Source of the DNA: Cantharellus purpuraceus
Lineage: Eukaryota; Basidiomycota; Agaricomycetes; Cantharellales; Hydnaceae
DNA: 64,000 nt
Assembly (NCBI GenBank): GCA_025174535.1
Contig: JALBUN010000015.1
Location: 556,501-620,500, forward strand
Reading direction: 5' to 3'
The notes under the pieces were generated by a model. The model saw only the letters and a list, made by a program, of their open reading frames with translations. It had not been told where the DNA came from and made no database searches. Position numbers and translations under genes: made by a program. Of the stretch, positions 1,315 to 12,965 are shown piece after piece. Each line of letters opens with the position of its first letter. The first letter of the stretch is position 1.

Positions 1315-1332
1315 GTATCTCTCCATTTAAGG
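1315..1332 (-). promoter_or_regulatory. Polypurine tract next to the 3' LTR
   Basis: On minus the sequence reads TTAAATGGAGAGATAC immediately before the LTR start TGTTATGA. The second family copy has TTAATGGAGAGGTAC directly before its LTR at 13761. A purine-rich stretch abutting the 3' LTR is the expected primer site for plus-strand DNA synthesis in LTR retrotransposons. Its position shows that the antisense gene is internal to the element. Confidence 0.6.
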
Positions 1333-1416
1333 CCAAGCCCCTGAGGCCTCATGTCTGTGGATTGAATAGGTGAGACAGTTGGGCGCAGTTGGAGTTATAC
1401 TGGGGGTCTGGAGACA

Positions 1417-1425
1417 TATAAAAGG
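1417..1425 (+). promoter_or_regulatory. TATA box of the antisense gene
   Basis: CATATAAAAGGAGGGG lies about 40 bp upstream of the ATG at 1456 and 60 bp upstream of the in-frame ATG at 1477. The second family copy keeps CATATAAAAGGAGGGG at the same distance on its own strand (13642-13660). Conservation of a strong TATA box in both copies supports transcription antisense to gag-pol. Confidence 0.6.
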
Positions 1426-1455
1426 AGGGGCATGATTGAGGTCTTATCCTCAAAG

Positions 1456-2049
1456 ATGTCAAACCCTTTGGCAAGCATGAGTGTGGCCAAGCTTGAGCAG
1501 TTGCTCTTGGCCTGATGGAAGGAAGAGGAAGAGGAGCGGAGATGGAAAGAGGAGGAGGAAGCAGAATGGAGGCGGAAGGAGGAGGAGAAGGCGGAATGGA
1601 GATGGAAGGAGGAGGAGGAGGAACAGAGACAGAAGGAGGAGGCAGAGGTGGAACGGAGACACAAGGAGGTGGAGGAGCGGAGACGGAAGGAGGAGGAGGA
1701 GGCGGAACAGAGACGCAAAGAGGAGGAGGAGCGGAAATGGAAGGAGGCGGCAGAGACGGAACGGAGAAGGAAAGAGGAGGAAGCGAAAGCCGAGAGAGCC
1801 TGCAGGGTCAAGGAACTTGCGGCCTCAATGGAGGCCACGAGACTGAAGGAAGTGGAGGAGCAGGCGCATGAGCTAGAAGCCGCCATGGAGGTAGAGGAGA
1901 AGGTGACTGGGACAGGGGTGACCAGCCGCCCAGGAAGTCTGAGTGTGCCAATATGGGCAGGGACCCCCGAGGTCGCCATCATCTCCATTACACAGACAGA
2001 GACAACTCGTCCGACAACTGTCCCTGCGGTGACTCGCCGTTACGTCCAC
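1456..2049 (+). pseudogene. Antisense accessory gene of the gypsy element, part 1 (coiled coil)
   Basis: Plus-strand reading frame opposite to gag-pol. The ATG at 1456 (or 1477, MSVAKLEQLLLA) is open apart from one TGA at 1513, then runs through a highly charged E/K/R coiled coil (about residues 20-150) to a Thr/Pro-rich part. The second copy on minus (13603 to 12966) shares the MSVAK start, the same TGA after LLLA, the coiled coil and a VEEQAHELEAAMEVEE motif. The LTR-like unit at 2050 cuts the frame; it resumes near 3473. The shared TGA is probably an old CGA to TGA change. No enzyme domain is seen. Confidence 0.65.
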
Positions 2050-10779: not shown

Positions 10780-11240
10780 AAATGGAATTTGATAGGGAAA
10801 AGGTGGTTCCCATACAGACACAGCCTGTACTGGAGAACAGAATGTGATATGGCCCAATGCCCAGTCAATCAACGCATTGTAGCGGGTGAGCCAATTATGT
10901 CCGAGAACCACAGAACAGCAGGAGTCAAGCGGAGTAACATAGAATGTAAGGTTCTGGATTTCTCCGACAGAAAAACGGATAGACAGATCTATAGCTCATG
11001 AAATAACAGCATTAGTAGTGCCATCAAATAATCAGAGTGATATCGGAGTTATGGTGTATGTATGGAGTTTATGTAAATCAGAAAAAGAGGAATCGAGGAA
11101 ACAATGAGTAGAACCGGAGTCAATTAATGCTTGGATAGTGGTATCGGGAATGGAGTTGGAGTAGACAAGGAGGGTAAGGGAGTCGGAGTAAGAGTGGATG
11201 CGTTCAGGTGGACCTTGTTTGTCATATGGGGAGTACCAAC
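10780..11240 (-). pseudogene. Gypsy aspartic protease (retropepsin)
   Basis: On minus, the frame starting near 11150 reads DTTIQALIDSGSTHCFLDSS with the catalytic DSG at about 11113-11121, then after a stop IDLSIRFSVGEIQNLTFYVT and VVLGHNWLTRYNALIDW. This is the usual order for the protease of Agaricomycete gypsy elements: the DSG loop, a flap-like strand, then the LG-NWL helix. The coding sequence degrades after HITF at about 10840, where inserted sequence seems to begin. In-frame stops make it non-functional. Confidence 0.7.
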
Positions 11241-11278
11241 GCAGCCCTCAGCCCATACGGAGGCTATAGGACTGCTTA

Positions 11279-12421
11279 CTATTTTTTTGGGTCCATCGCT
11301 TTTGTGTCAGACTTGTCCGTTGTGGCATTGGCGGCACGGCCCTTTGCCTTTGCTGCGGACAAGGTTGCCTTGTTGCAATCCTTGGCTTGGTGGCAAGGCT
11401 TTCCGCAGAACAGACAGAGGTTGTTGTCCATGCGGTGCTGGCGTTCCTGCTGGGTAAGTTTTCCGTCCTTCCCCAGCTTGGTGGAGAGGTCCAGAGTACT
11501 CTTGTGAGCTCTGGAGTTATTGCTGGTGCCGGAGTTGTTCTGACCAGAACCGGAAGCGGCAGCATTACCAGTGTTTGACTTCTGGCCTGAGTTGGCGGTG
11601 GTCCTCTTATCAGACCCCTTGTTGGACTTTGGGGTCTTGTCCAATGATTTGTCCGATTTGTTGTTGGCCAAATTTTCGTGGGAGACCTCGGATTGACGTT
11701 CCCAATAACGGGCGTCGATGGATTGGGCAAGCTTGCGAAGGTTAACCAAAGTATCTGGCTTACCGACGCGTGATATCTCGTCCTTGATGCGGGATGGAAG
11801 ACCAACGTAAAATTGGCGTCAGAGTGCGGCGTCACCCCATTGGACTTTTGGGGCCAGCTGCTGGAAACTCACAATGTATTTTGCAATTTTGTGATTTTCC
11901 TTCATCTGAAGTCGATCGAGTTCATTCTTGGCATCGGCCTCGGGGTTGTACGGACTGAAATTGGTCCGAAGTTCGGAGATGAAGTCGGAGTAGTCATCTG
12001 ACCATATCAGCTCATCAGAATCGTCCATGAGCGCTGGCTCAAAGTAGTCCAGTGCGGTGCCCTTGAGATAGGACATGGTGAAGGTGACCTTCGCCCGATC
12101 GGATGTGAATGCGTTGGGGTGGTCATGGAAATTCAACCGGCATTGCACCAAGAACGGCTGGAGCTTTTGCGGATCAGAGCCATCGAATGGGTCGGGTTCT
12201 CGGACCTTGGTCCGGGACTTAGGGACTTGTGGGTTACGGATGCTGCTGGCAAGCAGGGAGATGGCTTGTGCCAGATTTGGAGAGGGCGGGGTGTCGTCTT
12301 CTTCATTGACAGCCTCTATGTGGTCTGTCGGTTCTTCAATGGCCTTGGGGATGGTGTCTATGCTGGGAGCGGGCACCTAGACGATTCGTGCATGTTCGGA
12401 ATTGGCGGTGGATTGTGGCAT
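11279..12421 (-). pseudogene. Gypsy Gag (capsid/nucleocapsid)
   Basis: The likely start is the ATG at 12421 (MPQSTANSEHARIV), followed by a TAG and then the long frame from 12376: acidic N-terminus, capsid-type helical region (DPFDGSDPQKLQPFLVQCRL, KVTFTMSYLKGTALDYFEP), a TGA after WGDAAL, then RQFYVGLPSRIKDEI, a Lys/Asn/Ser-rich linker and a zinc knuckle C-x2-C-x4-H-x4-C (CLFCGKPCHQAKDC). It ends at a stop at 11279. The TGA sits in a CGA context (AAL-RQF), and the TAG is likely a former CAG. Confidence 0.75.
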
Positions 12422-12453
12422 TGGTAGGAGTGAGTATGGCAGTTTGAATATAC

Positions 12454-12965
12454 TGTTATGCACTAGGTCCAATTGGGGGTCAGAGATTGGGTCGGAGATT
12501 GGGTCAGAGGTTGGGTTGGAGTCAGAGAGGGGGTCGGGGTACGTCATGGGGGTCAGAACGGACTTGGCTTCAGCTTATGTGCTGCGCCCTCACTGGTACT
12601 GGTGTCCGAGATTTCAGGGACGGAGTACAACTTAGAGAGTTAGGATTGGACTTAGGAACGAGGTGTGATTCGATATTCGAACTGGGGAATGAAGTCCCCA
12701 GTCAGGCAACTTAAATACATATTTGAAATCTAATAATAATTACTCTGGTGATGGGTCTCTGAGGCCAACGGGGATGGATGTCTGGGTTCCTATGGTGATG
12801 CTGATGCATCAATCGGAACCGGAGACGGATGGGCAAGATTCAGCAGTGACAATCGGACAGATAAATGGAGACGTGATGGTTTCCAAATGGAGTATAGATT
12901 TCATATGTGTGGGGATCTGAGTGGATCAGACAGGGATCTGGGCATTAATGAATATAGTCATAACA
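12454..12965 (-). mobile_element. 5' LTR of the minus-strand gypsy element
   Basis: 512 bp, read on minus from TGTTATGACTATATTCATTA at 12965 to GGACCTAGTGCATAACA at 12454. Its terminal repeats TGTTATG/CATAACA match the LTR at 13761-14861. Gag begins 33 bp further on. The outer flank (12966-12970, TAGCC) is the antisense gene of the second element, which this insertion truncates. The matching target duplication would be at the far end, outside the window. Confidence 0.8.

What the first reader, a model, noticed from the sequence alone, without database searches (positions are those of the whole stretch)
1315..12965. Chromovirus with an accessory gene antisense to gag-pol, between pol and the 3' LTR
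The plus-strand gene at 1456-5437 ends 160 bp from the convergent end of pol (5597) and begins about 140 bp from the polypurine tract and 3' LTR start (1314), so it lies wholly inside the minus-strand element. A second copy of the family (12966-13760 next to the LTR at 13761) has the same gene, same strand relation, same TATA box and same distance to the LTR. Two independent copies make capture by chance unlikely. Antisense ORFs are known in some plant LTR elements; I know of no described fungal chromovirus with this layout.
Basis: partly seen in the sequence, partly recalled or inferred. Interest (0 to 1): 0.88.

Follow-up and report, generated by a model that had tools for sequence, protein, structure and literature searches.

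The report
Mushroom retrotransposon with backwards accessory gene
A very abundant jumping element in a mushroom-forming fungus carries an extra gene that runs backwards relative to its other genes and has been kept intact by natural selection, probably because its protein helps the element; similar layouts are known in plants and in one other fungus.

Summary
The minus-strand element (5' LTR start 12966, 3' LTR start 1314) is a Ty3/gypsy chromovirus (Pfam: gag, RT, RNase H, integrase zinc domain, SH3, chromodomain). A plus-strand gene lies between pol and the 3' LTR. In the window it is broken into three pieces by two insertions; in other copies the pieces are contiguous. It belongs to the element: 20 of 20 copies sampled by their pol end carry it, 17 of 17 sampled by the gene have pol in the same unit, and two copies seen edge to edge, gene included, have perfect 5-bp target-site duplications. 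It is a selected coding gene: dN/dS 0.32 (0.12 without CpG-touched codons) against 0.24 (0.06) for the pol end. Its 141-bp leader, with TATAAAAGG in 26 of 26 copies, is the best conserved of seven segments compared. The protein is a predicted long coiled coil plus six invariant cysteines spaced as in a fungal Zn2Cys6 cluster; no relative was found outside this genome. I infer a nuclear, nucleic-acid-binding regulator of the element (not shown). The layout is not new: Boty/brtn in Botrytis and Grande, RIRE2 and Retand in plants have it. New are the basidiomycete host, a product without detected relatives, and copy-level selection evidence.

The parts
1..1265 (-). dispersed 1.4-kb repeat inserted in the element's 3' LTR (continues left of the window)
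   Evidence: inverted copy of 2060-3460; remainder of the LTR found in L026
1266..1314 (-). start of the 3' LTR (TGTTATGAC at 1314 downwards), cut by the insert
1315..1455 (+). leader: polypurine-like tract side of the 3' LTR, palindrome GAGGCCTC, TATAAAAGG at 1418-1426; best conserved of seven segments
   Evidence: 26 copies, 94.7% mean pairwise identity, 0.0044 transversions per site
1456..2047 (+). antisense gene, 5' piece (MSNPLASMS..., Lys/Glu-rich repeats); one in-frame stop near 1513 in this copy
2048..3472 (+). inserted dispersed repeat, about 1.4 kb (edges approximate)
3473..3844 (+). antisense gene, middle piece
3845..4674 (.). unidentified insertion, absent here from uninterrupted copies
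4675..5437 (+). antisense gene, 3' piece with the six-cysteine module and the basic C-terminus
5438..5596 (.). convergent spacer between gene stop and pol end
   Evidence: about 144-175 bp in 47 places elsewhere
5597..6379 (-). end of pol: SH3_Tf2-1 and Chromo domains
   Evidence: Pfam
6380..11000 (-). rest of pol with further inserts (about 6605-7171 and from 9383)
   Evidence: domains of relatives
11279..12376 (-). gag region in two open frames (11279-11818 and 11819-12376)
   Evidence: the second matches Retrotrans_gag, Ty3_capsid, DUF4939; the first matches nothing
12454..12966 (-). 5' LTR (TGTTATGAC ... GTGCATAACA)
12972..13760 (-). diverged second family member: piece of the antisense gene and its leader
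13761..14260 (+). LTR of that second member (TGTTATGAT start; far end not fixed)

Best explanation
An abundant Ty3/gypsy chromovirus of an agaricomycete carries a third gene of its own, antisense to gag-pol, between pol and the 3' LTR. Shown: the gene is part of the moving unit, is present wherever it was tested, and is held by purifying selection on its protein; its leader with a TATA box is the best conserved of the segments compared. Inferred: the gene is transcribed from that leader, apart from the LTR-driven gag-pol RNA. Inferred: the product is a coiled-coil oligomer whose six-cysteine module and basic tail (GKGKRK) bind nucleic acid in the nucleus, where it regulates the element's expression or replication, as others have proposed for the antisense proteins of plant Grande and Retand elements.
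For: Linkage: 20 of 20 pol-end loci, 17 of 17 gene loci, 47 of 78 gene places with a listed convergent pol end, target-site duplications TTAGG (L017) and ATTGG (L011), same order in diverged loci L048 and L052. Selection: gene frame 0.49 stops per copy and open in 20 of 35, other frames 6-20 stops and open in 0 of 35; dN/dS 0.324 [0.271-0.384], without CpG-touched codons 0.116 [0.081-0.167]; 64% of transversions at third positions; 0.12-0.18 against diverged subfamilies. Promoter: TATAAAAGG in 26 of 26, leader most conserved. Product: long helices at high confidence, six cysteines in 208 of 208 cells examined.
Against: No transcript or protein evidence. No Pfam or structure match; PF00172 only 1 of 22 copies at E 0.8. 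The cysteine part is not confidently folded (pLDDT about 40-50) and has the highest dN/dS of the gene parts, 0.51. Closest disjoint pairs give 0.45 and the pair L049-L050 0.55. Leader conservation may owe partly to its role beside the LTR in replication.
Confidence: 0.6

Rival explanations
1. The gene is a selected accessory gene, but its protein is not a DNA-binding regulator: it acts in particle structure, RNA packaging, nuclear import or against host silencing.
For: Same linkage and selection evidence; coiled coil and basic tail fit many roles; no domain match; highest dN/dS in the cysteine part.
Against: Six invariant cysteines at Zn2Cys6-like spacing suggest a metal-bound nucleic-acid module; indirect only.
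Confidence: 0.33
2. The strand matters as antisense RNA (regulation by dsRNA), and the open frame is incidental.
For: Convergent layout would yield RNA complementary to the genomic RNA; proposed for plant elements in PMC7264820.
Against: Protein-level constraint: dN/dS 0.32 and 0.12 without CpG codons, third-position excess, open frame in 20 of 35. Both functions may coexist.
Confidence: 0.04
3. A host gene hit repeatedly by insertions of a chromovirus.
Against: Target-site duplications lie outside the whole unit; 20 of 20 and 17 of 17 linkage. No copy outside an element was seen, but searches score only the best candidates.
Confidence: 0.01
4. The real coding frame is on the gag-pol strand (an env-like ORF3), and the antisense frame is its shadow.
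For: Opposite-strand frames of about 277 codons overlap the repeat part in L009, L017 and L018; one reverse frame shares the third-position register, dN/dS 0.437.
Against: That reverse frame has 6 stops per copy on average in the part compared and is open in 0 of 35, against 0.49 and 20 of 35 for the antisense gene, whose dN/dS is lower.
Confidence: 0.02

Closest known systems
Boty and its antisense gene brtn (Botrytis cinerea; Zhao et al. 2011, not read; passages in PMC7264820, PMC4227169, PMC8365987)
   Same: Fungal gypsy element with a chromodomain in gag-pol and an additional antisense gene, listed with elements that have it between pol and the 3' LTR.
   Different: Ascomycete host; PMC8365987 says brtn is missing at its start in one consensus. 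Protein homology to the present product was not tested: no BRTN sequence was at hand.
Plant elements with antisense ORFs: Grande gene23, RIRE2, PvRetro13 (PMC7264820, two of three parts read)
   Same: [quoted passage not shown] Grande's has its own promoter and a nuclear product, as that review reports.
   Different: Plant hosts. No homology test was made.
Retand lineage with TRP28 antisense ORFs (PMC11963269, passages)
   Same: Antisense ORF as a constant feature of a lineage, probable DNA binding, regulatory role proposed.
   Different: Non-chromovirus plant elements. The product here matches no Pfam family above its cut-off, TRP28 (PF04195) included.
Fungal Zn2Cys6 binuclear cluster regulators (PF00172; spacing recalled)
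   Same: Six invariant cysteines at Cx2Cx6Cx12Cx2Cx6C, beside predicted coiled coil.
   Different: No significant Pfam match; by eye the half-motifs look swapped in order; fold not shown.

Membership tests
Ty3/gypsy chromovirus | RT, RNase H, then integrase | tested here: met
   RVT_1, RT_RNaseH, Integrase_H2C2 above Pfam cut-offs in relatives L009, L017, L018, L021; rve 27.0 bits, below its cut-off of 32.6
Ty3/gypsy chromovirus | chromodomain at the integrase C-terminus | tested here: met
   PF00385 29.3 bits against 25.1 in window 5597-6379
Ty3/gypsy chromovirus | gag, LTRs TG...CA, 5-bp target-site duplication | tested here: met
   Retrotrans_gag and Ty3_capsid; LTR edges and TTAGG, ATTGG duplications in L017 and L011; not seen for the window copy
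[quoted passage not shown]
   20 of 20 and 17 of 17 loci
LTR elements with antisense additional ORF between pol and 3' LTR | own promoter and transcript (shown for Grande according to PMC7264820) | not testable with these tools
   only the conserved TATA box is seen; no RNA data
Boty/brtn family | product homologous to BRTN | not tested
   no BRTN sequence at hand; no named BRTN hit appeared, since searches returned no hit at all
Zn2Cys6 regulators | six cysteines with the Gal4-type spacing (recalled) | tested here: met
   208 of 208 cells are Cys in up to 35 copies
Zn2Cys6 regulators | match to PF00172 | tested here: not met
   1 of 22 copies at E 0.8
Zn2Cys6 regulators | binuclear cluster fold | tested here: inconclusive
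   pLDDT about 40-50 over the cysteines in two predictions; no fold search run on such models

The most novel reading that the evidence does not exclude
The element carries its own transcription-factor-like gene: a coiled-coil oligomer with a half-swapped Zn2Cys6-like cluster, driven by a private promoter beside the 3' LTR, which recognises the element's leader or LTR and sets its activity. It would be a regulatory gene kept by a lineage of basidiomycete chromoviruses and unrelated to BRTN, Grande and TRP28 proteins, so that antisense accessory genes arose independently several times.
Probability: 0.3. Interest if true: 0.75.

Novelty: new variant of a known kind. Interest (0 to 1): 0.5.

Why it matters
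Antisense accessory genes of LTR retrotransposons have no established function in the papers seen here. In this 40-Mb genome at least 150 places could be scored, so selection on such a gene can be measured directly; it is constrained nearly as strongly as the end of pol. That makes 'what does it do for the element' testable and gives a basidiomycete case to set beside Boty and the plant elements, possibly of independent origin. It also warns annotators that a coiled-coil, cysteine-bearing 'orphan' in such genomes may be an element gene.

Tried and rejected
Relatives outside this genome: two searches of the 5.8-billion protein set (residues 95-554 at E 0.01, 7994 candidates scored; residues 325-520 at E 1, 2070 candidates) gave none. 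The third search was a control: a host gene of the window (51411-53660) found many named agaricomycete proteins, best named one Gautieria morchelliformis at 73%. So the set holds such fungi, but it reaches only relatives that share exact words, and repeat genes may be missing from annotations. Two viral-contig scans confirmed no relative (81 and 3 pattern matches, none confirmed). Solved structures: best E 0.35 and 1.9, on the repeat part. Pfam: nothing above a cut-off for the gene product. AlphaFold, whole product and cysteine part: helices confident, cysteines not, so no fold search was run.

Rejected: two chance hits on a host gene; an env-like sense frame; 1456-5437 as a gene with introns (the intervening stretches are absent from uninterrupted copies and one is a dispersed repeat). 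A gene-free family member and a host paralogue were looked for only as far as the capped searches reach.

Rows dropped: for I planned 59 of the 147 rows; only 20 were fetched, all from rows 2-62. Rows 12, 22, 27, 32 and 55 of the plan were skipped because L009, L014, L017 and L018 already covered them. In four of these the gene follows pol; in row 27 (L018 1-681) the LTR of the neighbouring element comes right after the spacer, and the letters beyond that element look like the gene's 3' end, so the gene there seems to be interrupted by it.

Literature: seven full-text searches were answered. Their listings show no antisense accessory gene described in a basidiomycete chromovirus; this covers open-licence papers and those terms only. 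PMC2864245 (two passages and section 5) names an 'add. ORF' of unknown function in a figure legend, orientation not stated there.

Full report
What is there. The window lies in a 40.15-Mb genome of 50 contigs. A host gene in it finds mainly agaricomycete proteins among its best named hits, first Gautieria morchelliformis at 73% identity; the host is an agaricomycete, perhaps near Gautieria. From 12966 down to 1314 lies a minus-strand LTR retrotransposon. Its own pol end matches SH3_Tf2-1 and Chromo and one gag frame matches Retrotrans_gag and Ty3_capsid; relatives match RVT_1, RNase H and the integrase zinc domain above Pfam cut-offs, the integrase core just below. It is a chromovirus.

The antisense gene. 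Plus-strand coding sequence starts at ATG 1456 and ends at 5437, 160 bp from the end of pol at 5597. It is not one gene with introns: two stretches, about 2048-3472 and 3845-4674, are absent at this place from uninterrupted copies, where the remaining pieces are contiguous. The first is a dispersed 1.4-kb repeat that also cuts the 3' LTR in inverse orientation. The window copy is broken and rearranged, and its far LTR edge shows no matching target-site duplication.

Does it belong to the element? From the 147 pol ends scored (of 1196 candidates) I fetched 20, all among rows 2-62. All 20 have the 3' piece of the gene beside pol in the same order, and 11 of 20 show the leader within the 2.7 kb fetched. 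The 17 loci taken by the gene (those with a match to its 5' part, window aside) all have pol in the same unit; in L010 and L025 a middle stretch lies inverted between inverted repeats, and in L016 the gene end and pol end are missing. Of 78 gene places, 47 have an opposite-strand pol end at 144-175 bp and none a same-strand one within 400 bp; 31 have none listed, which says little because one search was capped. One of those 31, L019, has pol beyond an insert. Two copies seen from edge to edge, gene included, are flanked by perfect 5-bp duplications, TTAGG in L017 and ATTGG in L011. The host-gene reading is refuted.

Is it a working gene? In the 35 copies with more than 70% of the part after the repeats, the gene frame has 0.49 stops on average and none in 20 copies; the other five frames have 6 to 20 stops and are open in no copy. 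In one search, whose rows are the best-scoring candidates, 40 of the first 76 rows have no in-frame stop across the match (my count). Pairwise dN/dS over 37 copies is 0.324 (codon bootstrap 0.271-0.384); the pol end over 17 copies gives 0.237 (0.174-0.316). Dropping codons touched by a CpG in any copy gives 0.116 (0.081-0.167, 249 of 459 codons) and 0.063 (0.032-0.114, 160 of 261). Transversions fall on third positions in 64% (gene) and 88% (pol). Control frames of the gene give 0.44 to 0.92; the lowest of them shares the third-position register. Against two diverged copies at 55-61% protein identity the ratio is 0.12-0.18 with dS near saturation; between those two, L049 and L050, it is 0.55. 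Over 18 closest disjoint pairs it is 0.45. Both fit recent decay without selection. In the longest within-copy LTR matches of L016, L017, L018 and L019 the two LTRs differ by 6-8%, mostly by transitions; one gapped match (L012) differs by 12.5%.

The leader. The 141 bp between the 3' LTR and the ATG have 94.7% mean pairwise identity over 26 copies and 0.0044 transversions per site. The pol end has 0.0051, the LTR head 0.0135, gene pieces 0.011-0.025 and the convergent spacer 0.036. TATAAAAGG is present in 26 of 26, and the palindrome GAGGCCTC does not vary. An in-frame ATG also lies at 1432; from the TATA position I expect the ATG at 1456 to be used (inference).

The product. The frames seen run to roughly 550-600 codons, 745 in L028. 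Lys/Glu repeats are predicted as one long helix (residues 2-131 of the L014 frame), with further helices at 235-269, 278-340 and 462-512; between the last two lie six cysteines, Cx2Cx6Cx12Cx2Cx6C, Cys in 208 of 208 cells. The spacing is that of fungal Zn2Cys6 clusters (recalled), but PF00172 matches 1 of 22 copies at E 0.8, the predicted fold there has no confidence, and this part has the highest dN/dS of the gene, 0.51. No relative was found outside this genome.

Spread within the genome. The diverged copy at 12972-13760 is one of many: one search lists places down to 66% DNA identity. Two diverged loci that reach pol (L048, L052) keep the order LTR, leader, gene, pol end. With a diverged query 150 of 700 candidates were scored and matched.

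How it likely works. LTR-driven RNA makes gag-pol; the leader drives the antisense gene toward pol (inferred). The protein is likely a nuclear, oligomeric, nucleic-acid-binding factor acting on the element (inferred). Packaging, import or anti-silencing roles remain open and are scored as the main rival.

What is known. [quoted passage not shown] PMC4227169 (passages) gives Boty-like gag-pol a CHROMO domain beside brtn; PMC8365987 (passages) cites brtn as an additional antisense gene of Boty; PMC5987419 (one passage) reports a BRTN-like transcript in Monilinia. So the layout is known, also in a fungal chromovirus. New here, as far as these searches go, are the basidiomycete host, a product without detected relatives, and the selection evidence.

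Noticed in passing
window 12440-12453 and LTR about 220-232 nt before its end; also L009, L011, L012, L016, L017, L019: The letters right after the 5' LTR (GTATATT[CT][AG]AACTG) are nearly complementary to a spot inside the LTR in 7 of 9 copies, 2-4 mismatches of 14 against shuffle means of about 5. This hints at Tf1-like self-priming instead of a tRNA primer (Tf1 recalled). In L015 and L018 the best complement lies elsewhere.
   Followed up: partly
L010 3699-6811 and L025 about 3348-9136: Stretches of the element lie inverted between inverted copies of dispersed repeats, as if recombination between inserts had flipped them.
   Followed up: no
L017, L018, L016, L019 LTR pairs; gene copies: Differences between copies are mostly transitions, and Arg codons with CpG turn into Trp, Gln, Cys or His, which looks like CpG decay of silenced copies.
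   Followed up: partly
window 23927-25381: A further truncated pol piece of the same family (89-90% DNA identity), in the opposite orientation, cut by a piece of the 1.4-kb repeat.
   Followed up: no
window 51411-54354, minus strand: Host gene for an AMP-binding, carrier and thioesterase protein; hits include polyporic acid synthetases.
   Followed up: partly
window 31456-34221, minus strand: Open frames that look like pieces of a voltage-gated cation channel (by eye; not searched).
   Followed up: no
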